Origin: Eumeta japonica
Lineage: Eukaryota > Arthropoda > Insecta > Lepidoptera > Psychidae
Direction of reading: 5' to 3'
NCBI GenBank assembly: GCA_005406025.1
Contig: BGZK01000134.1
Coordinates: 124,001 to 188,000, forward strand
Length of the DNA stretch: 64,000 bases
In this document: one piece after another, positions 1,774 through 59,892 of the stretch
Layout of the letters: the number at the start of each line of letters is the position of its first letter
How positions within the stretch are numbered: the stretch's first letter is position 1
Position numbers and translations under genes: made by a program
Notes under the pieces: model-generated
Told to the model about the DNA's origin: nothing
The model's database searches: none
Seen by the model: only the letters and a program-made list of their open reading frames with translations

Positions 1774-2826
1774 TAGTATGATTTTCTACGATTTTAAGTG
1801 TAATTTGACAGCCGAGCAAAGCTTCGCTCGGCTTAGGACTGCTTTTGGCGAAGAATAACCATGCAAGGCAACTATTCATAAATGTTTTGCAGAATTAAAA
1901 CGCGGGCGTGTCAATCTCAGTGACTAATTTCGTGATGGTGGTCAGTCTACTGTTGTGAACAACAAAAACATTGATTTTGTGCGCCGTATGATCGAAACAG
2001 ATAAGTATCTGTACTACCATGGGTTTTGGGTCTCCTTAGGCATAGGCATGAGTTAAATATATTCAATCTTACACAAACATTTGGGTATGAAAAATCTATA
2101 CTTGCGGTGAATACCACACAATTTGACTGAGACTCAAAAAAAGGATCACGTCACTTGGTGCAATGCCAAGTTTATCAGATTCAAGGAAGGGGCGCCATAT
2201 TTGACGTGGAACATGGTGACAAGTGATAAAATATCTATTTATCGCTACGATTCCAAAACAAAGCAGCAATCGACCTTATGGGTCTATCGAGATGAGCTGA
2301 AACCAACCAAAGTGACGTGCGAGCGAGTGCCTCTAAGCGGAGGATTGCTTCTTTTTTAATAAAACTTTACACGTGGCTACTGTTGCTTTGGAGTAATGTC
2401 GTACTATGATAATAGTGGTTGGTACATAATCAAACAAACAAATCAGGCAAACTTTGCCGGAAGTTATTGACGAACTCTTTAAAAATAACCGTAACTATCG
2501 TATCATCTTGCACCACGACAATGCAACTGGCATTGTCAATACCAGTTCTCATATTGCCAAATAGAAAAATAATTTTTGAAGGAAAAAAACGTAGAATTTA
2601 TGAGCCATGCTGCATTCAGTCCTGGCCTGACACTTTGTCACTTTTTTTTGGACGCAAAAATTAAGAACGCGGTCAACGATCGTCATCACCAGAAGAGACT
2701 GTTGAAGACTATGAAAAATATGTTTCCGTGGTCACTAAGGGGGAGTGGCATAAATAGTTTTAAAATTGGATTATTCGTATGAAAAAGTGCATTTATCCTA
2801 ACGGAGAATATTTTCAGACAAAATAA
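1748..2826 (+). pseudogene. mariner transposase relic (cecropia-like), dead
   Basis: This is the remains of a DD34D mariner transposase of about 350 codons. The start reads MDLSRENFR, as in moth cecropia-type mariners. The helix-turn-helix part (FAELKRGRVNLSD), the linker (ILHKHLGMKNLYLR.IPHNLT) and the segment STLWVYRDE can all be followed with frameshifts and stops. The first catalytic motif is altered (TSDKIS for TGDETW). The HDN motif survives in another frame near 2513. The last motif reads SPGLTLCHFF, so the third catalytic aspartate is replaced by histidine. The C-terminus (CIYPNGEYF) stops at 2826. The element cannot make active enzyme. I could not delimit its terminal inverted repeats. 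Confidence 0.85.
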
Positions 2827-3337
2827 ATTCATTTTTGACTAATCATAGTAATTTTTTCTCATTCATTCCAGAAATTTTCAGTACGCCCTTCGTTTAAATA
2901 CTTAATGATCGTATTCTAACATTCACTTTTATTTATGAATATTATAGTGATATTCATTATGAATATGACTGTTAATTCATAAAATTAATGTGTGATTTCA
3001 TTTCACTAATTCTTATATGAGTAATGCAATTAGTATAACTCATAAAATAATGAATATGACTCATGCAATCGTATATATGAATCATATAAACATGGTAAAC
3101 ACGGATTAATCTTTAAAGAGAAGATAAGAGACCCATTAATAATTTTAGATACTGGATCGATAATTTATGTTTGAACTTCGAATGCTATATTTTTTGTTGA
3201 AAATTGTTTTTTTTATACTCACTCACATAAGAACTGCTGAACTTATTAGTGTTTGAGTATGACCAGTCGACGCGGCATCGTCTGTAAATGGTTTTGCGTT
3301 ATTTATTTTTGGAAATCTATACGCCCTTCATCTTGTT
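2827..3337. other. AT-rich non-coding DNA with ATTCAT/ATGAAT words
   Basis: ATTCAT and ATGAAT words recur in both orientations between about 2925 and 3090, making weak hairpins. No coding sequence is visible. Confidence 0.4.
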
Positions 3338-4140
3338 AGGGTTCCATACCTCTAAATGAAAAGAAACAGAATTCTTATAGGTTCACTAGTGTGTCTGAGT
3401 CTCTGCCCGTCTGTCATAGCCGATTTTCTCTGAATCTACTGGATCTATTATATTGATGTTTGGAGCACATATGTATGTTTCTGGCCCAAACACAGAGGGT
3501 ATATCGTAAATAAATAAATTTTAAATATCAGGGTCAGTTTTGAGGGGTAAATTAGATAATAAAAAAGGTTTTTAAACTATGTCACTTTCAAATAAAAGCG
3601 CTTTTTAAAATGAATTTGAATATCTTTTTTTTTTTTATGATATTAAAGTAAGTACTGTAAAAGTTATTCGGGAAATAGGTGAAAATTTATCATTCCTCTT
3701 ATCACCGAAACATATTGGTCTAAAATTTTGAAAAAAATACAGTTATACTAATAGATTACAAGACAACCTATAAAACCTATAAAACTTTACGGTTTACTTC
3801 TTTTGGTTCGTTTCAACGTATAGTATAAACTGACATTACTAAGTACGTGAGTACTCAGTCTAAGTTTATATTTGTTTTTAGTCTATCGTAAAGGCAATAA
3901 TATATACGTCACTACAACGTAATATATGTGTCAAACTTGGCATAATCATAGTGTAAACTTAATGAAAACAATACATAAAAATTTGTCGAGTGTGAGTGAG
4001 GTTTGTGCTAAGATTCCGCAAATAAAGGAAGTAAAATAATTTATTTTAAGAATTTAACAAAAACATATTGTGCTATAGTGCGGAATACTCAGTGTGCGAG
4101 TGCGACTCGCACTTAGTCAATTTTATTGATTTATTTTCGA
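3338..4140 (+). repeat. Dispersed lepidopteran repeat, AGGGTTCC-starting family
   Basis: The order of words (AGGGTTCC, CTTATAGG, a CTGTCATAGCCGATTTTCTC block, GGGTCAGTTTTGAGGGGTAA, TCTAAAATTTTGAAAAAAATA, GCGAGTGCGACTCGCACTTAG) is that of a moderately repetitive non-coding element I know from many moth and butterfly genomes. The copy is old and has no ORF. Family assignment is from memory. Confidence 0.6.
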
Positions 4141-4259
4141 AACCCATAACGCCCAATGAAGAGGGTGGGTTATGCTTATATTGAATAAAATATATTATGG
4201 CAGGAAATCGCTTGTACATCGTTTTTTTTATTGCAAATCAAAGTTTGTCGTTAGCAACA

Positions 4260-4650
4260 AAACAGAATTAACGCGAAAAGAAGTGAGGACGATGGTTTTT
4301 TTATTATCCTGAAAGTTTTCTTTTGTCCCAAGGTTACTGCTCGTCTTGAAAATGCTTTTGGGAAGGAAGTACATCACCTTGAGCTCCGAGAGATATTAGT
4401 ACCCTGATTTAATTGTCACCGTAGTTCTCTCTGTGATGAGATTTGTAAAGTTTGGTTCTTTACTGCGACCACTAAAGAAACTGTCTGGCGAACAATTTAA
4501 GAAAATCCACATATCATCTACGAAGAAATTCAAGGTCATAGGATTGGTATGAATTCAATCCTAAAAACATTTGAATGCTAAGAAAATCAGTTATCGCTGG
4601 ATTCCGCATGGACTACCTCATTCAGAACAAAAATAAGGAGTGATCCACAA
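4260..4650 (+). pseudogene. mariner-like transposase fragment
   Basis: This is a short, badly broken stretch. Translated pieces TVWRTI.ENPHIIYEEIQ and a segment that reads, with one frame change, as ILKTFEC-KKISYRWIPHGL match the helix-turn-helix and linker of mariner transposases (TVWRTIRKNPHLTYDEIQ-like, then RWIPH-L). No catalytic motif remains. It differs from the copies at 1748 and 20040, so a different subfamily is likely. Confidence 0.55.
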
Positions 4651-6262: not shown

Positions 6263-7392
6263 GGAGCAAATGTTGATATTACGAGTTATGGTAAAACAAA
6301 TGACATTAAAATTTACTCCGTGTTCAAATACTTAATTTTCATGGCAATTGGTTGAACAATTTAGTAGTTGACGTGCTGCAGCGCCATCTAGTGGCTAGTT
6401 ATAGTTAAATGAATAGGCTATATATATATATATATATAGCCACGTAGATGTGCTTACTTTCATGATGATCGATGAAACGATGTTGGAGTTCAGAGACCAA
6501 TATAAATATATATCGTATATTAATGACATACACTTTTTTCATAAAATATCTTTATATATATATATATATATACATATATTTGATATACATAAACAATATT
6601 ATTAAGTTTGATAGAATTTATTAAAATGTGACAGAAATGATGAACGATTTATGAATTAAAATAAAAATTGATTTTATTAACGTTTACTTATTATAAATTA
6701 TTTTATAAGGCAACATTTATAAATAATACAATGGTATTAACATCTATGTCAATCTATTTTTCATTAATTCACTTTTTCATTTACTTTTGACATTAATTGG
6801 ATTTCCTCTAAAAAGGAATTCAATTAGTGTCACTTAAAGGAAATGTATTCGATATTTCCTCTATCGTATTATACTTTATTATCTAATTTGACGTTTAATA
6901 TCTTCCAGTATTGGTTCTCCATGTTTATCTTCCGTTTCCTATTTTATTCTCATAATTAAGAAAGTGTAGTTGTTTTTTCAATTACAGTTCAATCTCTTTT
7001 CATTATTATTAATTGCAGAATAATACGACAATAGTTGGACGGTGCGCGACGAACTCTCCAATTGTTCATTTGGTGCACTCTCGTTTTCCAATTAATTTAC
7101 AGCGTTGTGTGGGTTCATATTTTGTAACAGCTTATTATCGACGTCTCGAACAGGCTTCGTAAGGAAATTGGGAAACACATCACACGCAATTGACAAGATA
7201 CGATACAGGCTAAATACGAAATCGTGAATGTGTAATAACGTTAATATCCGTAAGGGTATTTTTAGAAGGAATGGAAAATATTTTGAGTCGATAGATATAT
7301 TGCGAATATATTTTTAAATAGTCCCAGCGTCGTATTATATATTTATATCATTTATTTAACAATATGCATAAGCGTTTTGTCGTCGTACATAC
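6263..7392. other. AT-rich intron DNA
   Basis: The stretch contains the short word GCAGCGCCATCTAGTGGC (about 6379), which is common in lepidopteran repeats, and two (TA)n runs near 6420 and 6555. It lies downstream of SOAT exon 4, so it is intron unless the next exon is missed. Confidence 0.4.
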
Positions 7393-7529
7393 CATTTCAC
7401 ATGTGACAGTGACGGCGGAAGCCAACGCGAGGTGTTCTTTGGAAATGCTCCACAGGGGCACGCCGAGCAACAACGTGTGCGTACCGAGCAAGCCCAGTAG
7501 ACCTAAGGCAGTCCATACTCTTCTTATCG
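7393..7529 (-). CDS. SOAT: SOAT third coding exon
   Basis: The acceptor is TTCAACAG|CGATAAG and the donor is GAAATG|GTATGT. The 137 bases complete the split codon GCG and then give 45 codons, beginning IRRVWTALGLLGLLG and ending in VTCEM, phase 0. This matches the second or third membrane segment of SOATs and the segment preceding the conserved F(E)QIR-type motif. The longer ORF on the opposite strand here is a shadow. Confidence 0.8.
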
Positions 7530-13500: not shown

Positions 13501-16500
13501 TAATGACGGACACAAAAAATCAAGAGCTTGACATGACTTAAACACAATAACCACGTAAAAAAATACATATTCTCCTAAAATAGCGTGATGCGTCCGTTTT
13601 TCGGGCAATTAGCCACCCATTGATGGTGTTGAACAATGAGAAATTTATTATACAGAGTGCTCTGCATGCCCTCGATTCGCGTTCGTTAGTGCTAACAAAC
13701 TTTACGACTTTATTATGGACGAGAAAACACTTGGTAAATATACACAATCATAATTTATTATTTTTAGGTTTATTTTTTAGAAACATGTAGACGTTTCTAC
13801 AATGTCTGATACAAACGATACAATGTTAGTAATTTTCCATATGTTTAACAAAAGTTTATCGCTTTTGATTCGTCTTTACGCATATCGTCAAAAAAACGTC
13901 ACAATTATTTAATTCGTTTGAGTGACGTCGCCACCGAAACAATTTCTATTAACATTTCGCAACTTACTACCCGCCAGCGACATGGAGGAGTAATAAATAA
14001 ATAAACTGTCAAACTGGGAGTACAACCCAAAACTTTTTGCATTTAATAAAAAGTACACCTTACCCACCACATGAGGGACATATTTTATTTATTCGTTTGC
14101 TTGATGATTTCGCAAAACTCACGACACGGAAAAAAATTTGAGTTTTATTTGGATTATACGTTTGCGATCCATATTGATACTTAGACTGCGTTTTATTATT
14201 GTTTACCTGCATGTGCAATGCATGCATAATGCATTTTCGCATTGACTAATTTTCAGAAATAATAGACACCGACGTGGTCACGACCAGGTGACCAGGATCA
14301 ATACGAAGCAATCCTTCGCTATCGTGTCGGTACGTCTTGGAGTGTCGTTCAAAATTAAAAACAAGTCCAGTATGGCAGAACCTTAAAACTCACACAGCCC
14401 GATGCAGTCCATCGCCTTATTCAGACGCTGCTCGTGCGCCGCCCGGCCGGCGTACAAAACGCAACGAAGCGAAAACAAGCAAAGTAACTATGAGCGGATG
14501 ACTTTGAATACAGTACAGTGAGGGCGGCAGGTGATTGTGTTTGAGATGCATAAAATGCGTGTACGGCAGGTTATTGTGTTTGAGATGCATAAAATGCGTG
14601 TACGGCAGGTGATTGTGTTTGAGATGCATAAAATGCGCGTACGGCAGGTTATTGTGTTTGAGATGCATAAAATGCGTGTACGGCAGGTGATTGTGTTTGA
14701 GATGCATAAAACGCGCGCACGGCGGTTATTGTGTTTGAGATGCATAAAACGTGTACGGCAGGTGATTGTGTTTGAGATGCATAAAATGCGCGCAGGTTAT
14801 TGTGTTTGAGATGCATAAAATGCGTGTACGGCAGGTGATTGTGTTTGAGATGCATAAAATGCGCGTACGGCAGGTTATTGTGTTTGAGATGCATAAAATG
14901 CGTGTACGGCAGGTGATTGTGTTTGAGATGCATAAAATGCGCGTACGGCAGGTTATTGTGTTTGAGATGCATAAAATGCGTGTACGGCAGGTGATTGTGT
15001 TTGAGATGCATAAAATGCGCGTACGGCAGGTTATTGTGTTTGAGATGCATAAAATGCGTGTACGGCAGGTGATTGTGTTTGAGATGCATAAAATGCGCGT
15101 ACGGCAGGTGATTGTGTTTGAGATGCACAAAATGCGCGTACGGCAGGTTATGTGTTTGAGATGCATAAAATGCGCGTACGGCAGGTTATCAGGTTTGAGA
15201 TGCATAAAATGCGGCACGGCAGGTGATTGTGTTTGAGATGCATAAATGCGTGTACGGCAGGTGATCAGTGTTTGAGATGCATAAAATGCGCGTACGGCAG
15301 GTTATTGTGTTTGAGATGCATAAAATGCGCGTACGGCAGGTGATTGTGTTTGAGATGCATAAAATGCGTGTACGGCAGGTGATTGTGTTTGAGATGCATA
15401 AAATGCGCGTACGGCAGGTTATTGTGTTTGAGATGCATAAAATGCGCGTACGGCAGGTTATTGTGTTTGAGATGCATAAAATGCGTGTACGGCAGGTGAT
15501 TGTGTTTGAGATGCATAAAATGCGCGTACGGCAGGTTATTGTGTTTGAGATGCATAAAATGCGTGTACGGCAGGTGATCAGGTTTGAGATGCATAAAATG
15601 CGCGTACGGCAGGTTATTGTGTTTGAGATGCATAAAATGCGGTACGGCAGGTGATTGTGTTTGAGATGCATAAAACGCGCGTACGGCAGGTTATGTGTTT
15701 GAGATGCATAAAATGCGTGTACGGCAGGTGATGTGTTTGAGATGCATAAAATGCGCGTACGGCAGGTTATCAGGTTTGAGATGCATAAAATGCGCGTACG
15801 GCAGGTTATCAGTGTTTGAGATGCATAAACGCGCGTACGGCAGGTTATTGTCGAGATGCATAAAATGCGCGTACGGCAGGTTATTGTGTTTGAGATGCAT
15901 AAAATGCGTGTACGGCAGGTGATTGTGTTTGAGATGCATAAAATGCGTGCACGGCAGGTGATCAGTGTTTGAGATGCATAAAATGCGCGTACGGCAGGTT
16001 ATTGTGTTTGAGATGCATAAAATGCGCGTACGGCAGGTGATTGTGTTTGAGATGCATAAAATGCGTGTACGGCAGGTGATTGTGTTTGAGATGCATAAAA
16101 TGCGCGTACGGCAGGTTATTGTGTTTGAGATGCATAAAATGCGCGTACGGCAGGTTATTGTGTTTGAGATGCATAAAATGCGCGTACGGCAGGTTATTGT
16201 GTTTGAGATGCATAAAATGCGTGTACGGCAGGTGATTGTGTTTGAGATGCATAAAATGCGTGTACGGCAGGTGATTGTGTTTGAGATGCATAAAATGCGC
16301 GTACGGCAGGTTATTGTGTAAATGTTTCTGTTTTCACGAATCCTCATAAAACAGGCGTATCGACTTGAAGGCAATTTAGGAATGGACAGTTCTTATCTGT
16401 TATTATTACAAACTCACGCCTATTTCCCCGAAGAGTGGTCAGAGACTACAGATTTACGCATGGTAATGATCTTTGCACATCTCTTTTGCTTCATTGACAT

Positions 16501-19500: not shown

Positions 19501-22500
19501 TATGCTTAAGCGTTACCTTTATAATTTTTTTCCTAGTTTTTGGATATATGGTTTAAAAAATAAAAGGGAGGACACAATTTCTGCTATTTTTGAAGCGATT
19601 ATTCCTAAAATCATTCAATTAGTCAAAAAATATTTATTTTTTATATTCAACTATTAAACTAACTAGCGGCTTATACAAGACACCTACACTCTAAATTTCA
19701 TCAATATAAATCTAGTAGTTTTTGAGTGAAATGCCCGTGATGTACAAACGGGCGGACAGATGGACAGACATGATGGAACAACAAGGGTTCCGTTTGTGCC
19801 ATTTTAACTCGGAACCCTAATTAAAAACCGTGGCACATCATTTTTCTATTGCTTTTCTGTCCCCCAAAATGAGTGAATCAAACGTAAAAACTTGATATAT
19901 TTTGAAATTTTATTACAAAAAAAGAAAAAAATGTGATATAAGGCGCGAATAAATTTTTGATGTTTATGTACCTAATGCAGTATCGTTAAGAGTAGCAAAA
20001 AACTGGTCCAAGTGTTTTTAGTCAGGTAGTTTTGATGTCATAAAAAAACCTCGTTCTAGTCGACTTGTTACAAATAAAGTAGATGTCAATTTAGAAAAAT
20101 GAGAGCAATATCAGCTTATTAGTTCTATAGATATAGCTAAAGAGTTAGGGATTGATCAAAAAAGAGTTTTGACCCATTTAAAAAAGCTGGATATACAAAA
20201 AGCTCCATACTTGTGTCCCACACGAGCTCACTAAAAGAAATCTAATGAATCCTGTACTTATTTGCGATTCTCTATTGAAACCGAACAGATTTTGAAAAAA
20301 ATCATGACTGATAAAGAAAATAGATTACCCAACAAGAAGCGCGAAAAGGTTATGGTTAAAACGAAAGCAAACTCCACGGACTATGGTGAAACTCGAATTA
20401 ACTTACAATAAGATAATACTAAGTGTATGGTGGGATTGGAAAGGCATTATTCATTATGAGCTTCTACCGCCGGGCAAAGCCATCTAGTTCGGATTTCTTC
20501 GGTCAACAGCTGATGAGACTCAAGCAAGAAGTAAAAAAAAACGGCCGAAATCGATCAACAGAAAGGGTGTCGTTTTTAACAATGATAACACCAGACCACC
20601 CACATTTTTAGCCACTCAGCAAATATTGAGAGAGTTTGGTTCAGAAATGTTAATGCATTTACCATATAGCCCTGACCTTGCACCCCCAGATTTTTACCTG
20701 TTTCGGTCGCTTCCGAATTCTTTAGGTAGTGTTAGATTAATATCAAGAGAGAACTGTCAAAAGTACTTGTTTTTTGATCAGAAGTTACAAAATATCTACA
20801 GCAATGGGACTACGTCACTATAGTGACATAAGTGTCCTTACGAAATGGAAACAAGTTGTTGAATAAAATGGCTTAAGTATATATTATAATTAGATCTAAA
20901 TAAAATATAAAGGAAAATTATCTTGAATTGGTGTATATATAAAATACAAATTTAAAATATTTGTAGTTGTATTTTTCAGTTTAAATACACTCTATTTTAA
21001 TACTTCATACACAATAGAATGATACAAAAGGAATTCAAAATAGTCTCAATAATAATCTTGATAAGAAATTAATATTAGTACAAAGATAGTTAAAATAATT
21101 ATAAAGTTGTTGTTTAGTTAGGTGTCGTCATGTTAATGTATGCATTATTTAATTTTTTTTGAGTGTTACGACTTAAATTTAAAAAGTCAACAAGAAACTA
21201 AAATTAATAATGACTAGCCATCATAATAATTTTATTTCTTGTGGCTCTGTTTATCCTTTAGTTTTAAAACGCGACGAACAAAATATCTCTCTATCCTCTC
21301 ATCGTCTTCCAAATAAAACTCGAGATGGCAGAATTACGCTATGGACAGAACATAAGTAAACACTACAGCCGTAAATCACGTGCGTCGACTGCTACCTCCA
21401 TGGAAGCTTTATTTTCCCCGACTACTAGAAATTCGCGTCGTTTGTTGTTTTAGCAGCTTTTCATGAAATCAACGAAAACACTGGGTAAAATACTTAGCTA
21501 TGGGATTTGTAAGAGCAAAAGAGATATAATATGCCCATATATATATCTATCATATCAATAATATTGTAATACCGAAGTCGTCTACGTCAAAGGCCGAGCG
21601 GGCAAGATTTTTATGATTATAATAAACTAGCTTTTGTCTGCGGCTCTGCTCGCGTGGACATTATAAGTGATTCCTCATTTATTCAATCCCGATTCTGTAT
21701 TCGATTTTCGTTCCGATTTTGCACTTAGTTCCGATTCCATAGTGTTCTCTATTCCAATCTTAGTTTGTCTCTTTTCCAATTTCGCTAAGAGTCTCAATTT
21801 CGATATCGGTCCCGGTTTCTTATAAATTATTGTACCGCAACGAATTATTCGACAGTACACAAAATCATGTGTAAAATCAAGTAAATCTGTGTGCCAAGTT
21901 TCATCTAAATCTATTCAGCCGTTTATAGTTTGCAGTTTAAGTAACCAAAGTTCGTCACAAAATATCACATTTGTAATATTATAATAAAAAAATATAGTAT
22001 CGACAAAAGATGCTGTGTAAAAATCCTATCCATTCATTTTAATCAGCTATGATTTTTTGATTATACTATGATTTTATTACATAACTTTCTTACTATTAAA
22101 CTATTTTCAATAATCATAGTTACAATCGAATTCTCGACACTCTTTTACTTTCGCTTTCGCTCTACTTCACCCTCTCACACCAAATCTTCCTTTTTCTCTC
22201 ACCCTCCCTCCCAATCCTCATCGGCCACTGATAGCGATCCTTCTCTAAGCCAAGCAAACAATAAATATGGCCGACAAAATAAAATAAAAGTAATGATTTT
22301 TTATTGTTTAAGTTATAAAGAGATTGAACATTTGTTTATTTTATTTACAAATAAAATAGACAATTTGTTTATTTTATTGTATGTTTAGTTGTAAATAACT
22401 GCATAAATTTTGAAAAAAAAATACCAATGAACAAACAGATCCACAACAAAAGGTAGCCAATGCCCGTTACTTGATATCCAACTATCTATGTGCTAAATTT

Positions 22501-45301: not shown

Positions 45302-47560
45302 TTAAGACCTAAAAACCTTCAACAGATTTAGGAAATTGGCACAATGTCGCTTTACCTCATTAATATATTTGCACCACAGTAGATTTCTGTCAAACCATAA
45401 GCCCAAGTATTTTACACAATCTGATAAAATTAATGATGGTCCACCAATTGTTATATTTGGTAACATTCTTTTTTTACGTCGACTAAAAAGATATAATTTA
45501 GTTTTGTTACTAGACAGTTGTAAATCCAATTCATCTACCACTTGGACAATACAATTTAATGAAGTTTGGTTATAAGATTCACATAGTTTGATGTCCTTAT
45601 CTTTTACGTAAATCACAAAGTCGTCGGCATATTGTGAAATACATATATTTTGTGTTAAGAAACGCCAGATTTTGTATGTGGCTATATTAAAAAGAAACGG
45701 TAAAATGGGATCCCCCTGTGTTAATCTTTTGTTTGTTTTTCTGATGATTGTTGTCTCTCTATCATCAGACCTGACTTTTAAATCTCCTTCACTTAGGAAT
45801 GACCAAAGATATTTACAATACTTACTTCCAACCTGTAATTCGTCCAACATACTTAATACACTTTCGATGGCAACATTGTTATAGGTATTCTAAATATCTA
45901 AGAAGTAAGCCAATGTTGGTTCATTTTCTGAGACACATATTTGAATATATGTAACCAAACGACTTAGACAATCTATGCATGATTGAGATTTTCTAAAACC
46001 AACTGTGTAAGGGGATAATATTTCATTATTCTCCACATACCACTCTAAACGTCTTAATGGCATATTATGAAAAACTTTGCATATACATGACATCAAAGAC
46101 ATAGGTCGCAGTTTAAGACCTACGGAACCACGATTAGAGACTTTTGATATAGATAGAATTAAAACATCGCGCCATTGTACTGGGAAAATTCCGGATTCAA
46201 AAATCAAATTATATAACATTAAAAGAAATCTTTATCCGTCTATTGGAAGATTATATATCAAACTGTATGTAATTTCATCATCACCAGGTGCGGTATCTTT
46301 CTTTTTTAAACAGCTCTCTAGCTCTGTTATAGTAAAATCTGATTCTAATATATCATTTCTGGATGTAAACTTTGGATGTTTATTCGTTATGGAATCTGGA
46401 GTGAGAGAAAATAACAGTTTTTTCTGTTTGTTTAAAGGAACAAAATATCTTTGCTTTTTAATACCTTTCATCCATCTCATTCTTCTTAACATTTCTGATG
46501 CTGTCGTACTTTCATCTATTGAATTACAAAAATTATGCCAGTGTGATGACGTGGCTTTCCGTATGAGTTTATAAGCTTCTCGAGTTTTTGATTCCATTAC
46601 AGTGAGATTGTCGAAAGTTGGATTTCGTCTAAATATACTAAGGGCTAGGTAATTTCCTCTGAGTTCTGAGGTTTGAATTTCGATTCCGGATCTTTCCATA
46701 TTCCTATTAAAGGAATACTGACTTCTGCAGCAGTTTTGAATTGCGTTAGTAGGTAATTATACATTTCCTGTACGTGTGATGCGTCCGATAAATTAAAATT
46801 ATCGATTCTATCTACACCAAATGACGTTATTAGGGTATCATTGAATGCTGTCCAATCAATCTTCTTAAAATTCCGTCTACGAATGTTTTTATCAATTTTA
46901 GGAATGTTCTTATTTAATTTACTCATCAAGTGATCACTACCTAGATTTTCATTCATAACTTACCATTCAAATCTTACAGCGATATCAATAGAGACAAACA
47001 AGATATCTGGCGACTTTTTTTGTAGGAATCCGTTAATCAATTTAACTCTAGTGTCTGAACCTTCATTGAGGAAAATATGACCATTTTCTAATGAAGAGTC
47101 GGAAAGTTGTTCTCCTTTCAAGTCTGATTTAGAAGACCAGTTACTATGATGGCAGTCAAAGTCACCACATATTAATGTATTGTTTGAGAAAAGTGTAAAC
47201 AATTCGTCCCAGTCTGATGCCTGTGTTCTGACAGACGATGGACAATACATTAAAACAATGGTATGTATATATTGACAGTTATATAATCTAACATGAGAAA
47301 CTTCTATATCGGCGTGTCGCATTTGAATGCTTTTCAATTCACTTCTAATTGACCAATGCACAAGTATGGCCACCCCACCATAAGAATCATTTCTATTCTT
47401 TCTGTAGTTGTCATAATCTCGTATACGTATATTGTCGTATGAATGTAACCAAGTTTTACTCAATACGGCTACGTGAATTTTTTCCTTATTTAGAAGTTTT
47501 TGGAAACTTACCAATTTAGGCTTCAAACTTTGTGCATTCTATTGCAGAATCTTAATGCTA
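45302..47560 (-). pseudogene. LINE ORF2: endonuclease and reverse transcriptase, inactivated
   Basis: The endonuclease begins near ILQ(stop)NAQSL, where the conserved W of ILQWNAQSL has become TAG. LSKTWL, YGGVAILV and GDFDCHHSNW follow. An in-frame stop lies at 46960 and a frameshift near 46690. The reverse transcriptase shows APGDDEITYS, RPMSLMSCICKVF, GFRKSQSCIDCLSRL, TQGDPILPFLFNI and the catalytic QYADDFVIY. Two more in-frame stops interrupt it at 46232 and 45890, the latter in LDI(stop)NTYNNV. All breaks look like single-base decay rather than rearrangement. The enzyme would copy LINE RNA at a nicked target in the nucleus. Confidence 0.85.
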
Positions 47561-48460: not shown

Positions 48461-49196
48461 CTAAAATCTTTATTTCGCTTTTCATTACCGTTAAAATTTC
48501 TTCTTCAGTGAATTCTAAATCCACACTTTTTATCAATCCATATGTCATAGTAGTTTCTAAAGTTTTCCAGTTACACGACGACGAGTTATACAAGACAGTT
48601 ATACTCAAGCTGTTTGGATTTTTCATTTTTTACCAGTTTAATTGTATCATTATCATTCTCGAAGTAAATGAGAACCTTGAAGGGAGATTTGTACTTAATA
48701 TTACTTATGTTACAAATATTTTCATTTCTTAGTAATTTTGCCAAAGCCATTTGTTTGTGTAATTCATTTTTGGAAGTAACGAAAATTTAGAATTTCGACA
48801 TCTCTTCTGATATAATTAAACTTTCTTCGACTTGATACTGATTTAAAGAATCACTTCTTAAAGAACTTTTTTGTTTCGTCTTACTTCTATAAAACCTTTT
48901 TCACTATTCGTATCTTCTTCATGTCCTTTCCAATTTTCCGATCTAATGTCAAAATTCTAAGAAGTCAGAGTCGTGCAATCTTTCTCTAACTCCAAAAACT
49001 GATTTACTCTCGTTTCTAATATTTGATTTAATTTCAATTCACATTCTTTTTAATAATTCCGTATCGTTTTTATCATTCCCGTCCGCAGAGTTATTGTCAT
49101 CCATAATTAAGGAAGATTGTAAGTATCACAACAAAACACATGCGCGCGTACTCTGCTAATGACGTGTGATCTTATGAGCGGTCGCGAGGGACTGAA

Positions 49197-49209
49197 CCCA
49201 AGTAACAAA
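49197..49209 (+). repeat. Left 13-bp terminal inverted repeat
   Basis: CCCAAGTAACAAA; a perfect inverted match to 56701-56713. The preceding bases are GACTGAA. Confidence 0.85.
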
Positions 49210-49260
49210 GTTCTCCTGTAGTGCACAGTTTACAGGCTTACAGCGCTAGTATCTCTCTCT

Positions 49261-49620
49261 TAGTGGTTCCAGGTTTTGCTACCAAGCTTATAACAGGTCA
49301 CACGGAGTTTGTTTGCGTTTATAGTACATCTGTTCTTATAAGTTCACTTATAGTCGTGTATAGAACAAAATTATAGGCGCAGTAAAGGCTAAGATAGCTT
49401 ATAAAAGTGGTGCAAAGGTGTAAATACACTTGAGAAAACTTGCTCCAGTAAGTTAAACTTATAATCCCATACAAGAAGTAATTATAAATCCGCTATAAGT
49501 GTCACACGCTAGTAATAGTAATTTATAGAACTAAATACACTTAGAACCATTTGCACTTGTTACTTGACCTTGTAGGGGTGTATAAGTCAACTTTATGTGA
49601 CAATTATAAGTGAATTAGTT
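49261..49620. repeat. Left subterminal motif array
   Basis: TATAAGT or its complement ACTTATA, with close variants, occurs at about 49337, 49346, 49399 (TATAAAAGTG), 49455, 49493 (CTATAAGTGT), 49580 and 49603 (TATAAGTGA). The array starts with TAGTGGTTCC, shared with the right end. Such arrays are typical transposase or accessory-protein binding zones in CACTA elements. Confidence 0.6.
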
Positions 49621-49849
49621 CTACAGTGGTTTCTTTTAAGAGTAAGTGTACTTGGTATTATTGTGGGCTCTCGAATGCTATTATAGTCTTAATTTCTATA
49701 TAAGGGTTTCTTATAAAACTATTAGTGTCCAAAGATATCTTAGTGAAGTCCATTTAAGAAGATAATTGCTTTTAATATTTGTCGCATCTTCACGGCCATT
49801 TTGATTTCTTTTGAGTCATTGGGTTTTTGTTAAATTATATCTTACAAAA

Positions 49850-52079
49850 ATGGATGAAAACAAATGGAAGCGATTTAAAAAAAGCGGTTCATATAAGAGG
49901 AAAGTACAGAAAATATACCAACAAATGATAAGTGTGCCGTGTGCATCCATATCGAGCCAAGAACGTTCTGTAGAAGTTGGCGAGGGTTCTGGACGAAATA
50001 ATAATTTTCAAGACATTAATCCAGGAGTTTGCAATGGCGTTTCTATACAAAACGAGGTTTTACCCACAACACGTGATTTAGATTCGGACGATGACGAAGA
50101 ATATATTTGTGACGACTCTGATTCTGTGCAGGAAGATGAAAGTGACTGCTATTCAACATACGAGGAAAATAATAAACTACATAGTACCCTTAGTGAATGG
50201 GCTGTAGAACACAATGTTCCACATGTGGCGTTAAACTCATTATTAAAAATTTTAAATAAAAAGTTGAAAAATATCCTCCCTAATGACGCAAGAACTCTTC
50301 TGCAAACTAATAAAACAAATGTGGATATTATATATTCAGCTCCAGGGGAATATTGGCATAATGGCCTGAAAAAATGTTTAAAAAATATTTTGGAAGAGCT
50401 CTCCGACCCACCTAACGAAATTTCTTTAAAAATAAATATTGATGGCCTTCAAGTGTTTAAAAGTTCAAAGTACCAGTTTTGGCCCATTTTATGTTCAGTA
50501 TCTGAAATTCCACTGCCGCCTTTTGTCATAGGTAAGTAAGTACCTTTTGAGTCAGCTTCGTAGAAAAAATCATGAAAATCTTAGATAAAAATGTTTGCTT
50601 TTTTCATAGGTATCTACGCTGGTGATGGAAAACCTGAAGATCTTGACACTTTTTTGGGACCTTTTGTAACAGAAATGCAGCAACTTCAAGAGGGACTTAA
50701 AATAACAGACAAAGCACAAAGAGAAAAAATAATACATGCCAAATTACTAGCATTCATTTGCGATTCACCTGCAAGAGCTATGATAAAAGGTTTTTATTTC
50801 ACTAATAAGTATAGAAACATCTAGTACAGCTAACTAACTAATTCAGCTAATTAAAAGCAAGATAATTGTTTCAGGTGTATCGAACTTTAATGGTAAACAC
50901 GGATGCCTTAAATGCACGGTGGTCGGGGAATACTCTCACAAATCAAATACTGTGACATTTCCTCAATTCAATGGCCCCAAAAGAAATGACCAAGACTTTC
51001 GTGAAAGGAAATACGGGCAACACCACAAGTTGGACTCGCCGTTACTCAAACTCAACATTGATATGATTGAAGATTTTCCGGTGTCAGATTCGCTGCATCT
51101 CATTGACCTGGGGCTTATGAAAAGATTACTAATAGGATGGCGTGATGGCAATTTTGGTATTTATCTAACGAAATGGAGTGCTAGCGATATAGGGAAGGTT
51201 AACAATTTCTTAAATGATTGTAAAATGCCTACAGAAATACATCGGTCAGTTAGATCATTGGACGTTTTAAAACACTGGAAAGGTTCAGAGTTTCGTAGTT
51301 TTCTTTACTACCTTAGCTTTGTGATTCTTAAGAAGGTCTTAAAAGAAGAAGCTTATATACATTTTATGCATTTATTTTGTGCTATCACAATTTGTTCGAA
51401 TGAAAAACATTTTAAATTCTTTCGGATTGCTGAAGAAATGTTGGCACATTTTACAGAACAGTTCAAAAGAATATACGGTAAAGACTATGTCACAAGTAAC
51501 ATTCACAATCTCTCACATTTAGTTGACGAAGTTAAAAAATTCGGGACTTTGCAAAGTTTTAATGCCTACGAATTTGAAAATAAACTTCAACATTTGAAGC
51601 ATATGATAAGACATGGAAAAAAGCCATTACGTCAAATTGCAAGGAGAATCATTGAAATGGATTTAGTTGAGTTAAAAAGTTTAACAACAGAGAACAACAA
51701 ATGCCCAACAATAAAGAAAAGCAAACGCGGTAACAATGTTTTATGTTTAAGTGCATTTATATTATCAAATAAGAAACAAGACAAATGGTTTCTCACTAAT
51801 GATAATCAAGTGATCGAATTCATATCAGTTTATGTAAAAAAAAATGGTCAGACCCAAGAGCAAGATATAGAAATACGCGGTTATGTTGTGCAACAAACTC
51901 AAGATGCTTTTGAAAAGCCACTAAAATCTTCTTTTTTAAACATTTATCAGTGTGATTATGATGAATTCCACCGCAATAGAGAGGCTGATATCTTCAAAAT
52001 TTCAATCATTAAGTGTAAAATGTTGAGTATTTCGTATGGTAGGAAAATGTTTTTCATACCTTTGTTACATACTCTGTAA
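49850..52079 (+). CDS. TNP2/CACTA-like transposase, intact, 3 exons, 688 aa
   Basis: Exons 49850-50531, 50610-50789 and 50875-52079 join in phase (G|GTAAGT, G|GTTTTT donors; CATAG and TTTCAG acceptors) to 689 codons including the stop, with no interruption. The start is AAAAATGGATGAA; an in-frame TTG lies 39 bases earlier. Residues 78-104 are acidic. TNP2-family landmarks follow in order: NIDGLQVF with D198, YQFWPI and PPFVIG, a CDSPAR segment with D279, KHGCLKC (C298, C301), HLIDLGL (about 362-368), and HNLSHLVDEV...NAYEFENKLQHLK with E522, matching the plant YPFERYLG-LK motif. D198, D279 and E522 are the likely DDE triad. The role would be binding and cutting the 13-bp ends. Polyadenylation signals AATAAA follow at about 52089 and 52102. 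A host-domesticated copy is less likely, because the flanking repeats are intact. Confidence 0.8.
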
Positions 52080-52084
52080 GTAAG

Positions 52085-52110
52085 TGAACAATAAAAGTCT
52101 ATAATAAAGA
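52085..52110 (+). terminator. Polyadenylation signals of the transposase gene
   Basis: CAATAAAAG and TAATAAAG lie 8-30 bases after the TAA stop. Confidence 0.5.
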
Positions 52111-52580
52111 AAATTTAAGTTTTATTATTTCAATAACAATTTTCTTTCTTACAATAATATAAAAGCGAGACCAAAATCAGTCATAAAAGGTTTAATCAAT
52201 GAGGTAATCACGTTCCTTTCCTTTAGCTTATTGACGAGAAACATAATTAATCAATTATCACAATTACAAGTCTTTCAGTATCGTGTGTATCAAATATGTT
52301 TTGCTAAAAATACACTAAATTCTTTATTTATTCTAACATGTAGATAAAAATATATACTTTTAACTAACCAAACGCGACTTTTAAATCAATAGCCAAAATT
52401 CGTCAGATTACTAAGTTAAGCTAATGAAATAATCTATAGCTGTAAGTTAAACAAAAAAAGTTGAAAAGTTCAACATTAAGAATTCTGTACTTAAAACTCA
52501 CAATTCAAATAAAATAAAAAAAAATGTGTTCTACAAAACCATGGTAAGACAGCATTTGGCGCTACCTTTTGTTTAGCGCT

Positions 52581-52868
52581 AAACTTTTTTGTGAAAAGTC
52601 GCAGCTATTGATGAAAATTTCATAAATCAATAGTTTGCTACAATATAAATCGAAACTCAAGATCGACAAAATCTCCTAAAGTGACACATTTCCAAGATAA
52701 ATGCTGTAAAAAGTTTGAGAACTCCAATATTAGAAAGTTTGATGACCTGTATTTAGGAAATGTGACACTTTAAAAAATTTTATCACTCTTCAGTTTCGAT
52801 TTGTAGTAGAACAAACCATCGATTTATGGAAGATCTATCAATGACTGCGACTTTTCACAAAAAAAGTT
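52581..52868. mobile_element. MITE with about 120-bp inverted arms, nested in the transposon
   Basis: The left arm (ACTTTTTTGTGAAAAGTCGC, AATCGAAACT, AAAGTGACACATTTCC) is inverted at the right (GGAAATGTGACACTTT, AGTTTCGATT, GCGACTTTTCACAAAAAAAG). It sits between the two convergent genes, so neither ORF is cut. The arms differ by point changes; no ORF. Confidence 0.75.
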
Positions 52869-53300
52869 GTAGGTGAGGCGCAACTCCTCGGGCTCAACAC
52901 AAAAATCTTCTAACCCTTTTCGAAGGCTTTGTTTCCACATGGAGACGATAGCATTCATCAATATAAACAGCTTTTACTGTTGATACTACTATTTTGTACA
53001 TTGTTTGTTTGATTTTTAATTTTAGTTATACTACAATACAAAATTTTGTTGTATAGGTACATCAAAAATCACTTTTTTCACGTTTAGTTAAATAGGTGTT
53101 CGTCTATTCAACCAACAAATCTTAGTTACCAAGGCAACTTTAAAATAAACTTAGAAAATAAAATAAAAACTACGAAACAACTAATACCACCATCAATAAT
53201 TATTCCCACCTAATCTAGGATTATTCAAAAATCAGTAACAAAAAATGAATCAAGGTACCAAATATAGGTATGTTCTAAAGGTTCAGCGTATATGAACACA
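52869..53300. other. 3' spacer between the convergent genes
   Basis: AT-rich, presumably the 3'UTR of the minus-strand gene. Confidence 0.4.
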
Positions 53301-54796
53301 TTAACTACGTACGCAATTACCCGGGAATCCCTTGGCCTTTTTATCAGGCTTCTCCTCATTATTTTGATAGAGAATCTGAACACTGTTTTGGTCAGATCTC
53401 TCTTCATTATTTTGTTCAGGAGCCTCAACATTGTTTTGACCGGAGACCTCTCCGTTAACGTTCTCAATTGGCATATCTATTGGATGAGTTTTTGCTGTTG
53501 CTTTTTTCTTTACTCTAACTTTTGGAGCCGACATCCTCTGATTGCTTTCGCTGCGTTTATGAGCATTTTTCAAAATGGTTTTAAAAAATTTATCGCAGTC
53601 CACTTTTGTAAAACTTTCATCTGTTGCATGGATAATATCAAAAAAAAGAGAAATTGTTCTCGTAAACGCTTTGAAACATATTTTTACTGCTTCCTTCTTA
53701 GAAAAACCAGTCCACGTACATTGCTTTAGAAAATTTCTTTCAAACAAAGAATCGACCAAATGGTAAGCATTTACGCCTTTGCCCAAACCTTTAGAACACA
53801 CGCCGACAAATTTCATCAACATATTTTCCTTGAATGTTCTATTCGATAGCTTTTTTTCAAATTCCTCAAGGTCTTTGATATTTTTTATTAGAATTGGCTC
53901 TCCGTCAATCGTTTTTTGTGATGCACTCACTTTTATGAATGATCTTATCTCTGTTTGTATTTCTGAGATTTTTACACACATATTAGTTTGGATTTCGTAT
54001 AAGGCATTTTGGTTGGCTATAATTGTTGCTATGCTCTCCTTAATAGCTTTAATTTCTTTAGTTGGTGTTGAAATTTCCGGTTCTATGTGTGTATAAAGGA
54101 GGAAACTCTCTTCCGGAATCGTGACAGGGAAATTGCCCTCAACTGTTTCAACAATCTGGTCTTGGGGCACAAAACAGCAATCTTCTTGGATTTTTTGGGC
54201 TACTTGAGTGACTGTCGACGTGGTACTTTGCTCTTGATCATGATTCTGAAAAAAAAATGATTATAACATTTTTATGATTAAGTCTGTAAGTGGGATACGA
54301 GGGTACTATTGTATAATGGGCGAAAGGTTGACCATCTCTCACCATTATACGTACAACTAGTTCTATCTTATAATACCTAATAACCCTCACAATGTATGTC
54401 AAACATGTATCTAGTGGTTCTAGAACTGGTATAGGTTTAAGTAGCTTACATCTGTTAAAGTCTTCGCCAATTCGTTGAAAGATTTCTCTGGCAAGGGATA
54501 TTTTTCCTTGCGCGATGATCGACGGTTCGTATCTCTTTCGTCAGTTTCAGTGTCTGATTTGTCACTCATTGTATCAATTTCATCCTGTGCCTCTTGAAAC
54601 GTTTTATGGTTTTTTCTTTTTACATCACACGACATGATTTCCCAAGAAGCATCAGGTGAACTATTTTCCTGCCTCCTTAATTTATTTGCTGAATTCTTTG
54701 GCCAAAAAAAAGTAATTTATTGTGCACCCACAGATCTGGTACGGCTGTCAATCTTAATTCGCCTTTTTCAATTGTTTGCACTACTGAGAAAGGCAT
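53301..54796 (-). CDS. DUF4806-domain protein of the transposon, one frameshift
   Basis: Two exons: 54796-54450 (donor ACAGAT|GTAAGC) and 54245-53301 (acceptor TTTTTTCAG), phase 0, about 430 codons if one base is restored in the A8 run at 54704-54711. The start MPFSVVQTIEKG and the W-containing VPDLWV...WPK segment (residues about 1-34) are the usual N-terminus of insect DUF4806 proteins. The middle (MSDKSDTETDERD) is acidic. A coiled-coil-like stretch (about 175-225) precedes the DUF4806 domain (about 232-311; KDLEEFEKKLSN...CTWTGFSKKEAVKICF). The tail is basic (KVRVKKK) and then has about four copies of a QNN-containing 10-11-residue repeat. Function unknown; it may bind the subterminal motifs. 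It is transcribed toward the transposase gene. Confidence 0.75.
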
Positions 54797-54911
54797 GACA
54801 GGAATCTGTAAAAAAATACACGTAACAATAAATATATTTGACATCCAACCAAAGAAATATACCGAACTTACGGAGAGAGATGCAATAGTTTACATAGAGT
54901 TTCCGTAACAT
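54797..54911. other. 5' region of the DUF4806 gene
   Basis: On the minus strand a splice acceptor (TTTTTTTACAG|ATTCC) lies 9 bases before the ATG, so an upstream non-coding exon is likely, perhaps starting in the CpG-rich patch at 55410-55530. Confidence 0.4.
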
Positions 54912-55047
54912 TGGCAGCATTGCGAATTGTTAAAAAAGAATCCGTATCTCCATGCAATAAGGTCGTCCTTATGCCCATTCTTTAATGTACGTCCTTATTG
55001 CATGGGCATGGATTCTTTTTAAACAATTTCGCAATGCTGCCCAACAT
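54912..55047. mobile_element. Short MITE with inverted arms of about 55 bp
   Basis: TGGCAGCATTGCGAA at the left is inverted at the right (TTCGCAATGCTGCCCA), and the arms continue through AAAAGAATCC and CATGCAATAAGG. Both ends are flanked by ACAT, a possible 4-bp target duplication. It lies within the 5' region of the DUF4806 gene. Confidence 0.75.
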
Positions 55048-55289
55048 AACGAAAAGAAAGCTTAGTTGCGAAACGCACTCTAAGTTACTTTGCACCTAAT
55101 ACGATTTTTTGCTTAAACGATATAGGTGCAATATTAGGGACAAACGTAAGCACTAAGAAAAGCACCCGTTCAGGGACAGGTACGCGAGGCATCATGAGTC
55201 AAGATACAAGAACTATTGAAATTTTAGGCCCAATTGCACCAATACTTATCCCAAAATATGTTCTTATGGTATGACGTTGTCAAAGCTCG

Positions 55290-55540
55290 GTTAACCGGCG
55301 CCGGCGGCTTACCTTTGGTGCTAGTGGGCGTCAGATGAACATATTAAGTAAGTAGTGCATAATATCAACTTTTCTGAGTAAACGAAAAATTATTGCTCAA
55401 TATTATTCACGCACGTCCGCCGTCGTCACATTAGCACAGCTAAGAGTTTACTGAACAAGAACAGACACGCACGCGGCGTGCGAGCGAGCGCCGCGCCAGC
55501 TTCTCCGCGCGCGGCTAACTTCAATTCAAACATTACCTAC
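55290..55540 (-). promoter_or_regulatory. CpG-rich patch, possible promoter of the DUF4806 gene
   Basis: GCGGCGTGCGAGCGAGCGCC and CTCCGCGCGCGGCTAAC lie about 650 bases upstream of the start codon. The minus strand carries TTCAGTAAAC, initiator-like, just downstream of the GC-rich run. Inference only. Confidence 0.3.
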
Positions 55541-56340
55541 ATAACACAGGATTCCCCGCAGTTATACCACAGGTTATACCCTAAAAATACCTATCTAGTA
55601 CATTTACGGATGATTTCCAACAAGCAGCAATTACATTCTTTAAAAAATATTTAAGAAATGAAGTAATAAAACTAATTACCTAGTTAACACTCGTCACTGG
55701 TGAAATGGTCGTAAAAAGGGAAGACGTTGCAATTTTTACACCAATTTTTTTTCCTTTAACAATAATTTTGTGCGTTCTTAGTTCAAAACAATGTGAACTG
55801 GCCTTTCTTCAGAATATGTTAAAACTTTATGGCCACAACGATGGCAATTGCGAGATAACAATAATGAGTTTCAATCCAAGGCCATCGTTTTTAAGGCTCT
55901 AATATCATTTTTAGTCAAAAAACGGTCTATGTCCAGAAATATAACCATAATAGTTCGACTAAAGTCACAACTAAAACATAAAAATAATAAAACTCTTCGC
56001 TATTATACGCTATATATTAATAAAACGCTAATAAAAAATAATAATAATAAAACGCCATTATAATTAAGCATTAGACATTTGTATGCGGAACCCTAATTCG
56101 TCATAATATGGCGCGACAATGCTATTGGGACTAACATTATTTTTAAATACAACTTAGTAAATACGCCGTGTTCAAAAGGCGAACGAAAATTGAGATGTAA
56201 AACACAATATACTTCACCGAAAATACTTACGCGGTTGCGGTGCAAACGTGTATGCACGTGTAATATAACGTGCCAAATACTTGTTAATACGTTTAATATA
56301 AAATAGATTAACTTACCTTTTATTTTTATTCTCAATCGCA
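55541..56340. other. Transposon interior without a gene
   Basis: AT-rich. ORFs at 55705-55902 and 56093-56341 match nothing known. A CGGAACCCTAATTCG phrase at 56086 is the end of the common dispersed repeat, so a fragment of it is nested here. Confidence 0.4.
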
Positions 56341-56394
56341 CAACACTACAAAACAGGAAAGTAACAGAAGCGCGGTGTACGTTACAAGCTTGCC

Positions 56395-56600
56395 TGGTTC
56401 TATTAAATGCTTATAGGGAGCGTCGCGGGAGTAAATGGTTCTCCGGAATCTAACTATAAGTGTATTATGGGCATAAGTCGTGGTGTCTGGTTCTATTAGA
56501 TGCTTATAGTTGGCTTCGCGGGAGCAGATAGTTCTGCGTAGTCCAACTATAAGTGTATTATTGGTCTAAGTGGTGCTCGTCAAATCTACTATGAGTGTTT
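56395..56600. repeat. Right subterminal array with 93-bp tandem duplication
   Basis: TGGTTCTATTAAATGCTTATAG at 56395 recurs as TGGTTCTATTAGATGCTTATAG at 56488. Each unit ends with AACTATAAGTGTATTAT (about 56452 and 56545). A third relative, CTACTATGAGTGTTTTATTAG, follows at 56585. This is the same TATAAGT motif as in the left array. Confidence 0.75.
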
Positions 56601-56700
56601 TATTAGCAAAAATACGCGTATAAAATGGGCCCTTTTCCGTGGTTATAAACTTTTACTAGCTTGTTATAGACCTGGCTCCGGAACCACTACAAAACCACAT

Positions 56701-56713
56701 TTTGTTACTTGGG
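56701..56713 (-). repeat. Right 13-bp terminal inverted repeat
   Basis: TTTGTTACTTGGG, the exact inverse of 49197-49209, followed by AAATAAC. Confidence 0.85.
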
Positions 56714-58774: not shown

Positions 58775-59695
58775 GTGTCCGTTGGCTCACACTTTCTCTT
58801 CGTTGGAAGATTTGGATAGCAGGTCTCGTAGGAGCTGATATCCTTTTTGTCGGTCGATCGTACTGTGGTGCTACATTGCGTAGCGAGGTGTAGGGTTTGC
58901 GTCTGCGCGATTGAAGGAATGTTGCACCAGCATCTTTACAAACTCTTTGAGGGTTTCGACTTTCAAGTCTTTGGCGATCATGTCGTTTTTGACATACCAC
59001 CTGGCCCTCGCAATCATACGGAGCACTATGTTCTGTTGGGCCTGGAAACGTTGGCGCTGCAGTTCCGAGCAAAGGGCATACCAAGTCGGTGCAGCGTAGG
59101 TCAGGCGGGAGTGTATGTAACATTTGTAGATAGCTATTTTTGTCCTAATGGGTAGTCTAGAGGTGAGAATCGGTCGTAGTTTTGCGCGCGCACAGCACGA
59201 CTCAAGTGGATGACGTAGTCTTATTGGGGTACAATACACAGTGAACGGTGGATATGAACGCCCAGGTATCGGACGCATGTTTTCCATTCTACCGCCTGAC
59301 CTCTTAGGCGCAATTGATCTGACATGATACCTTGGCTCCCAGTCAATAGAGCGACCATCTTGCTGACATTGACGGCCATTTTCCATTTATCCAGCCATTT
59401 GGGTAGCAAATCAAATACGCGCTGGATTCTCTTCACGGCTAGATCGGCTCTTCGAGACGACGCGAAATACGCGCTGTCATCAGCATACAGCGCCAGAATT
59501 ACATCGTCCTCCCAGTCTTCGAGATGACCACGCAGCGTGGGTATATCGTCCGTGTATAATGCATACAATTCGGGAGATAGGCAGCTGCCTTGTGGTACTC
59601 CTGTACGTATCAGGCGTGGGGCGGATAGCACGTCATCGATAGCAACGCAGAAACTGCGACGTCGAAGAAAGCTGGCGATGACTTTTTCATGAGTT
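58775..59695 (-). pseudogene. Jockey-clade LINE reverse transcriptase fragment
   Basis: Reading leftwards from 59690: KVIASFLRRRSFCVAIDD, GVPQGSCLSPELYALYTDDI and the catalytic ALYADDSAYFAS (about 59490) in one frame, then, after a frameshift near 59230, RPILTSRLPIRTKIAIYKCY and LTYAAPTWYAL, with another shift near 58880. These are reverse transcriptase motifs 3-5 and the thumb region of Jockey-clade elements. The endonuclease and reverse transcriptase N-terminus are absent. The fragment begins abruptly at the edge of repeat B and ends near repeat A. Confidence 0.85.
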
Positions 59696-59892
59696 CGTTC
59701 GTTCGGTCGCGGATCTTCCACACCCCCTTTCTTGCGGGTGCAGGTGCGGGACGGAGGATTTATGTTGCCTTATGGCCCGGCGTCTTCTCGTCGGGGATAC
59801 GACCCCAACGGTCCAGTGGTGACGGCCCCATTTCAGAGGTCCAAACTTGAATAATTCCCGAGCCAGCCGGAAATCAAGAGGAGTTGTCAGTG
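59695..59892 (+). repeat. Direct repeat B flanking a reverse transcriptase fragment
   Basis: Same orientation as repeat A. Shared words include TCTCGTCGGGGATACGACCC. It starts CATGAGTTCGTTCGTTCGG, and the second head of repeat A starts CATGAGTTAGTTCGCAGG, so both junctions with the reverse transcriptase fragment carry the same phrase. Confidence 0.75.

What the first reader, a model, noticed from the sequence alone, without database searches (positions are those of the whole stretch)
49197..56713. Two-gene CACTA/EnSpm-like animal transposon pairing a TNP2-type transposase with a DUF4806 protein
Sequence shows one 7517-bp unit with perfect 13-bp inverted ends, AA on both flanks, TATAAGT-type subterminal arrays, an intact 688-codon spliced transposase gene and a convergent DUF4806 gene. 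Plant En/Spm is known to use a TNP2-family protein on 13-bp ends plus a second protein on subterminal motifs. The same architecture with a DUF4806 partner in an insect would be a distinct animal lineage of the superfamily. I do not know whether it has been described.
Basis: partly seen in the sequence, partly recalled or inferred. Interest (0 to 1): 0.88.

Follow-up and report, generated by a model that had tools for sequence, protein, structure and literature searches.

The report
Moth jumping gene with DNA-binding partner
This is a 7.5 kb cut-and-paste jumping gene of a bagworm moth that carries its own transposase plus a second gene whose product looks like a DNA-binding protein, a candidate for the helper role in the animal relatives of maize En/Spm.

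The parts
49197..56713 (.). whole transposon, 7517 bp
   Evidence: ends shared by 18 fetched two-ended copies and the window
49195..49196 (.). left target-site duplication AA
56714..56715 (.). right target-site duplication AA
49197..49209 (+). left terminal inverted repeat, 13 bp
56701..56713 (-). right terminal inverted repeat, 13 bp
49197..49760 (.). left subterminal region with 11 CTTATA motifs (either strand)
56390..56713 (.). right subterminal region with 4 CTTATA motifs; 92-bp direct duplication at 56391-56575
49850..50531 (+). transposase exon 1 (D198 codon 50441-50443)
   Evidence: Pfam; alignment
50610..50789 (+). transposase exon 2 (D279 codon 50762-50764)
50875..52079 (+). transposase exon 3 with stop (C298, C301, H498, H502; E522 codon 51576-51578)
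54450..54805 (-). DUF4806 gene, first coding exon (ATG 54794-54796), conserved N-terminal domain; frame interrupted at the 8-T run 54704-54711
53301..54245 (-). DUF4806 gene, last exon with stop: long helix and BEN-like domain
   Evidence: fold from homologue P0122
53637..53888 (-). DUF4806 domain
54806..56318 (-). inferred 5' intron of the DUF4806 gene (GTAAGT donor, CAG acceptor)
   Evidence: sequence only; no transcript seen

Best explanation
A two-gene cut-and-paste transposon of the animal CACTA/EnSpm (TRC) lineage. The left gene makes a CMC-type DDE transposase that cuts at the CCC...GGG ends and inserts with a 2-bp target duplication. The right, convergent gene makes a protein with a long helix and a BEN-type (DUF4806) DNA-binding domain. 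Most likely this partner coats the repeated CTTATA motifs inside both ends, brings the ends together and loads the transposase, as TNPA does for TNPD in maize En/Spm; it may also regulate the element's two promoters. Internally deleted copies that lack both complete genes were multiplied in trans. Shown: ends, duplications, copies, pairing, fold model of a close homologue. Inferred: motif binding, the partnership, trans-mobilisation.
For: Copies and ends. Second two-gene copy inside a trypsin gene on C4. Same convergent pair at diverged loci on C51 and C1784. Adjacent Chilo models evm_013644 (DUF4806) and evm_013645 (transposase), both on a contig of 226,028 bp. Catalytic and zinc motifs. BEN fold. 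Motif arrays concentrated at the ends. Fifteen derivatives built from the same blocks.
Against: The partner's frame is interrupted in the window, and the C4 copy is full of small indels, so neither of the two full-length copies reads intact for both genes. Both diverged pairs (C51, C1784) also carry stops. Two of four DUF4806-domain loci, C595 and C2648, have no transposase within about 9.3 kb, nor has a DUF4806 fragment of this family on C647. Only 2 of 23 diverged transposase places gave a DUF4806 neighbour in the one DUF4806 protein search that was answered. No binding, expression or transposition data.
Confidence: 0.76

Rival explanations
1. The DUF4806 gene is a passenger: a host BEN-type gene captured by the element, with no part in transposition.
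For: DUF4806 genes at C595 and C2648 have no transposase within about 9.3 kb; most diverged transposase places show no DUF4806 neighbour at this sensitivity (2 of 23 do); the frame is interrupted here.
Against: The same convergent arrangement at loci whose transposases are 51-61% identical at best and adjacent genes in Chilo need an old, kept association; the N-terminal part and the DUF4806 domain are conserved among homologues.
Confidence: 0.14
2. The BEN-type protein is a regulator only: it represses or activates the element's promoters through the subterminal motifs and is not part of the transposition complex.
For: BEN domains of known structure include DNA complexes, and BEN domains are said to recruit chromatin-modifying factors (PMC11075544 passage); the motif arrays lie where both promoters probably lie.
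Against: Deletion derivatives that have lost both complete genes keep both end regions, which fits a need in cis for movement; but derivatives arise with their ends anyway, so this is weak.
Confidence: 0.3
3. A dead element: the window copy is a relic whose partner gene is broken and which no longer moves.
For: 8-T frame interruption in DUF4806; C4 copy with many stops in both genes.
Against: Transposase is open over 688 codons; window and C4 copies differ by only 36 substitutions in 7366 sites, while C4 has 75 deletion events against 10 insertions, the pattern expected of assembly errors; three derivatives compared with the window have 90, 93 and 90 substitutions and 8, 9 and 15 deletion events over about 2900 sites.
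Confidence: 0.3

Closest known systems
Animal TRC elements (SmTRC1 of Schistosoma, TRC of Tribolium and Aedes; PMC1636069)
   Same: Transposase_21 protein, ends starting CCC (Tribolium CCCTAGTAGCA..., 9 of the first 11 bases the same as here), 2-bp target duplication, spliced genes.
   Different: The second protein there (SmTRC-PrA/PrB) had no relatives found by its authors; here it is a convergent DUF4806/BEN-type gene.
Maize En/Spm (CACTA)
   Same: TNP2-family transposase plus a second protein (PMC1636069 introduction); subterminal motif arrays and deletion derivatives (recalled).
   Different: CACTA ends; 3-bp duplications (recalled); TNPA and TNPD come from one alternatively spliced unit; TNPA is not known as a BEN protein (recalled).
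Spongebob / EnSpm-4N1_HM (Hydra, insects; PMC4298943)
   Same: CCC ends, 2-bp duplication, horizontally shared among animals.
   Different: No intact transposase could be found there; no second protein in the passages read.
Nuwa Harbinger transposons (passage in PMC12730594)
   Same: Two-gene logic: transposase plus a separate DNA-binding (Myb/SANT) protein.
   Different: Another superfamily and another DNA-binding domain.

Membership tests
EnSpm/CACTA (CMC group) | Transposase_21 (TNP2) domain | tested here: met
   PF02992 36.7 bits, cut-off 28.6; 20 of 28 family members at E<=0.01
EnSpm/CACTA (CMC group) | D, D, E with C(2)C and H(3-4)H between second D and E (definition from PMC12730594, passages) | tested here: met
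   D198, D279, C298 invariant; C301, H498, H502, E522 at least 90% in 28 sequences; in 42 sequences the first D falls to at least 90%
EnSpm/CACTA (CMC group) | RNase H-like fold of the catalytic domain | not tested
   structure job for alignment A4 never accepted
Plant CACTA | CACTA ends and 3-bp target duplication (the duplication recalled) | tested here: not met
   CCC ends; 2 bp in 19 of 19, 3 bp in 0 of 19
Animal TRC elements | ends begin CCC | tested here: met
   window and 17 of 18 fetched two-ended copies at both ends; L037 has ACC at its left end
Animal TRC elements | 2-bp target duplication | tested here: met
   19 of 19; empty sites
Animal TRC elements | Transposase_21 motif I (I/L/V-X-..-D-G-X3-F/Y-X7-9-W-P) | tested here: met
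   read by eye in the window protein, residues 191-213 (motif)
Animal TRC elements | L/V/I-D-X-L/M-H-X3-L-G motif | tested here: inconclusive
   window reads SDSLHLIDLG: all positions but the first (motif)
BEN domain | BEN fold | tested here: met
BEN domain | sequence match to Pfam BEN | tested here: inconclusive
   1 of 11 members at E 0.11
BEN domain | sequence-specific DNA binding | not testable with these tools
   needs protein

The most novel reading that the evidence does not exclude
DUF4806 genes across animals are at root transposon genes: BEN-type DNA-binding proteins evolved or spread as the end-binding partners of animal CACTA elements, and DUF4806 genes without a transposase beside them (two in this moth; perhaps the 69 and 54 counted in two Hydra species and the four in one block of the zebrafish sex chromosome) are stranded or domesticated copies.
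Probability: 0.3. Interest if true: 0.8.

Novelty: new variant of a known kind. Interest (0 to 1): 0.64.

Why it matters
Plant En/Spm needs two proteins, and the 2006 description of the animal branch found no relatives of its presumed second protein. A conserved BEN-type partner gives that role a candidate that can be tested with two cDNAs and a donor plasmid. It also links an animal family of DNA-binding proteins of unknown function (DUF4806) to mobile DNA, and may explain its patchy expansion in some genomes.

Tried and rejected
Tried without result. Scans of viral contigs with P0001, A1 and A3 and of prokaryote contigs with A1 confirmed no relative. P0116 (transposase) and P0133 (DUF4806) share a contig length of 2843, which suggested linkage; their coding sequences are too long for it and no overlap of 30-599 nt tried was compatible, so this was dropped. 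Solved-structure searches by sequence gave only weak matches, E 0.048 or worse, coiled coils among them. Pfam Transposase_21 against the whole genome found nothing, not even the window's own gene, so it says nothing about absence. A DUF4806-transposase fusion was looked for among 143 fetched proteins: by tblastn against the window only P0134 matches both genes, and that is a mis-joined trypsin model running through the C4 copy; by profile none matches both. The Foldseek search proper was not accepted; the VIA-align second look was used. A horizontal-transfer reading (91% transposase identity to Pararge, a butterfly of another superfamily) was not tested against host genes and is kept as a remark only.
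Full report
What is there. The unit runs from 49197 to 56713 (7517 bp). Its ends are CCCAAGTAACAAA and the perfect inverse, with AA on both sides. A spliced gene on the plus strand, join(49850..50531, 50610..50789, 50875..52079), has 688 codons with GT-AG splice sites and no internal stop. It matches Pfam Transposase_21 (TNP2) at E 3.4e-9, and DUF4218 below its cut-off. A convergent gene on the minus strand has coding exons 54805-54450 (first ATG at 54796) and 54245-53301, and matches DUF4806 at E 2e-8. CTTATA, in either orientation, occurs 11 times in the left 564 bp and 4 times in the right 324 bp, but only 4 times in the 6.6 kb between; 0 and 2 of 300 shuffles reach the end counts.

Whose genome. 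DUF4806 protein P0121 (EVAR_7130_1, Eumeta, contig 692,203 bp) matches the window's frame at 100% over 87% of the query. Names in the sources say Eumeta japonica or variegata, taxid 151549, a bagworm moth of Psychidae, Tineoidea. The held assembly has 701.7 Mb in 5067 contigs, and the window is C133:124001-188000.

It is a mobile element with these boundaries. A search with the left 604 bp gave 20 matches, the window included; this is a lower bound. I fetched the other 19. Of these, 18 have both ends; in L025 the right end was not found. Together with the window, 19 of 19 two-ended copies show an exact 2-bp duplication and 0 of 19 a 3-bp one. One of them, L037, has one mismatch in its left terminal repeat. 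L032 and L039 lie in the same kind of repeat at a matching position, so not all 19 need be independent events. Joined flanks gave 10 rows that span the junction (one, L035 on itself, trivial); I looked at 5 of them. For three insertions the repeat around the element occurs elsewhere without it, with the duplicated 2 bp present once: L031 against L029 (91.6% identity), L032 against window 20344-20922 (74.7%), and L033 against window 2199-2829 and L004 (71-75%); L039 against the window agrees with L032 but has a gap next to the site.

Kinds of copies. One further copy, L021 on C4, spans the whole unit with both genes (7378 bp). It sits inside a trypsin-like gene: model P0135 carries trypsin profile positions 1-52 and then runs into DUF4806, while P0134 starts with the DUF4806 end, then antisense transposase exon 1, then trypsin from position 50 on; both models are on a contig of 1,707,558 bp, the length of C4. 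Fifteen of the 19 fetched copies are 2.6-3.0 kb derivatives built from the same three blocks (element 1-1441, 3834-4631 and 6836-7517, with small differences in L026, L028, L031, L034 and L039). L025 starts in the same way. L037 (5786 bp) and L038 (6493 bp) are older, blocks 84-90% identical, with other deletions. Fourteen derivatives (L039 left out) differ pairwise by a median of 1.57% substitutions, range 0.41-4.01%. They lack both complete genes and yet have their own duplications, so they were moved in trans (inference).

State of the genes. The transposase reads open in the window. The DUF4806 frame is interrupted at the 8-T run 54704-54711; the six homologues that cover this place (P0122 and P0126 to P0130) continue without a break. 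The C4 copy has many stops in both genes. Against the window it has 36 substitutions in 7366 sites but 75 deletion events and 10 insertions. Three derivatives compared with the window show 90, 93 and 90 substitutions and 8, 9 and 15 deletion events over about 2900 sites. The C4 pattern looks like residual assembly error, and the 8-T break could be of the same kind. That is a suspicion, not a result.

Is the pairing real? (1) Two copies of this family have both genes. (2) A search with transposase P0001 (67 of 157 candidates scored) found relatives at C51:522629-524379 (+), pieces 51 and 54% identical and others 34%, and at C1784:67091-68258 (-), pieces 53 and 61% and one 40%. A separate search with DUF4806 protein P0141 found matches at C51:525246-525876 (-; 29 and 38%, best E 3e-13) and C1784:65586-66051 (+; 27 and 42%, best E 9e-11). 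In both cases the genes converge, as in the window, with about 0.9 and 1.0 kb between the matches (1.2 kb between the stops in the window). Pieces of both pairs hold stop codons, so these are broken copies. (3) In Chilo suppressalis, evm_013645 (transposase P0004, 58%) and evm_013644 (DUF4806 P0129) have adjacent numbers and a contig of the same length, 226,028 bp. Against: of 4 loci with the DUF4806 domain, 2, C595 and C2648, have no transposase within about 9.3 kb. A DUF4806 fragment of this family at C647:275944-276443 has none within about 9.4 kb either; a distant transposase (37%) lies 15.6 kb away. Of 23 diverged transposase places that I count, only C51 and C1784 had a DUF4806 neighbour; of the 3 that reach 50% identity in some piece (C51, C1784, C211), 2 had one. 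Searches with P0122 and P0129 did not complete, so the denominator is poorly tested.

How it most likely works. The transposase cuts at the CCC ends. The BEN-type protein, perhaps a dimer through its long helix, covers the CTTATA arrays and brings the ends together for the transposase. In maize En/Spm, TNPA and TNPD are both essential and TNPD interacts with TNPA (PMC1636069 introduction); that TNPA binds subterminal motifs is recalled. Each gene seems to start near its own end, so the same motifs may also control expression. Binding and partnership are inference.

Against what is known. The 2006 TRC paper (I read parts 1 to 4 of 6) reports CCC ends, 2-bp duplications and Transposase_21 proteins in Schistosoma, Tribolium and Aedes. 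It says that the presumed TNPA counterpart of SmTRC1 had no detectable relatives and calls for tests. Hydra Spongebob has the same kind of ends and duplications (PMC4298943, passages). So the lineage is known, and the plant type (CACTA ends, 3-bp duplication) is not met. In the held library, DUF4806 occurs in 4 papers, 3 of which also hold 'transposon'; I read one passage in each of these 3 and only the listing of the fourth, and none of the passages describes it as a transposon partner. 'BEN domain' with 'transposon' and 'CACTA' gave 1 paper, in which the two terms are far apart and unrelated; 'BEN domain' with 'EnSpm' gave 0. Of the other searches I saw mostly listings; apart from the TRC paper none of these showed a second protein of animal elements. 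Repbase and most subscription papers were not available, so prior description there cannot be excluded.

Verdict. A real, multi-copy two-gene animal CACTA element, recently active by its near-identical copies; a new variant of a known kind by virtue of its BEN-type partner.

Noticed in passing
P0001, P0122, P0142 against the window: Transposase 91% identical to Pararge and DUF4806 86% identical to Maniola (butterflies) although Eumeta is Tineoidea; Maniola and Pararge DUF4806 pieces are 100% identical over 180 aa. Suggests horizontal transfer of the element.
   Followed up: partly
14525-16319: Minisatellite, 39-bp unit, about 46 copies, open in several frames.
   Followed up: no
45302-47538 (-) and 58871-59769 (-): Open frames that look like non-LTR retrotransposon reverse transcriptase and endonuclease pieces, by eye only.
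   Followed up: no
52585-52864: 280-bp imperfect palindrome (115-nt arms, 79%) in the spacer between the two convergent genes.
   Followed up: no
54900-55054: Second hairpin inside the inferred 5' intron of the DUF4806 gene.
   Followed up: no
L040-L043 (C595:75450-76040, C2648:28443-29084): Two DUF4806-domain genes with open frames of 249 and 265 aa and no transposase within about 9.3 kb; candidates for stranded or domesticated copies.
   Followed up: partly
G000 C647:259071-260378: A more distant relative of the transposase (37%) with an open frame of 471 aa; a fragment of this family's DUF4806 gene lies 15.6 kb away on the same contig.
   Followed up: no
L021 against the window: Deletion-heavy small differences suggest under-polished repeats in this assembly, which would break transposon frames artificially.
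   Followed up: partly
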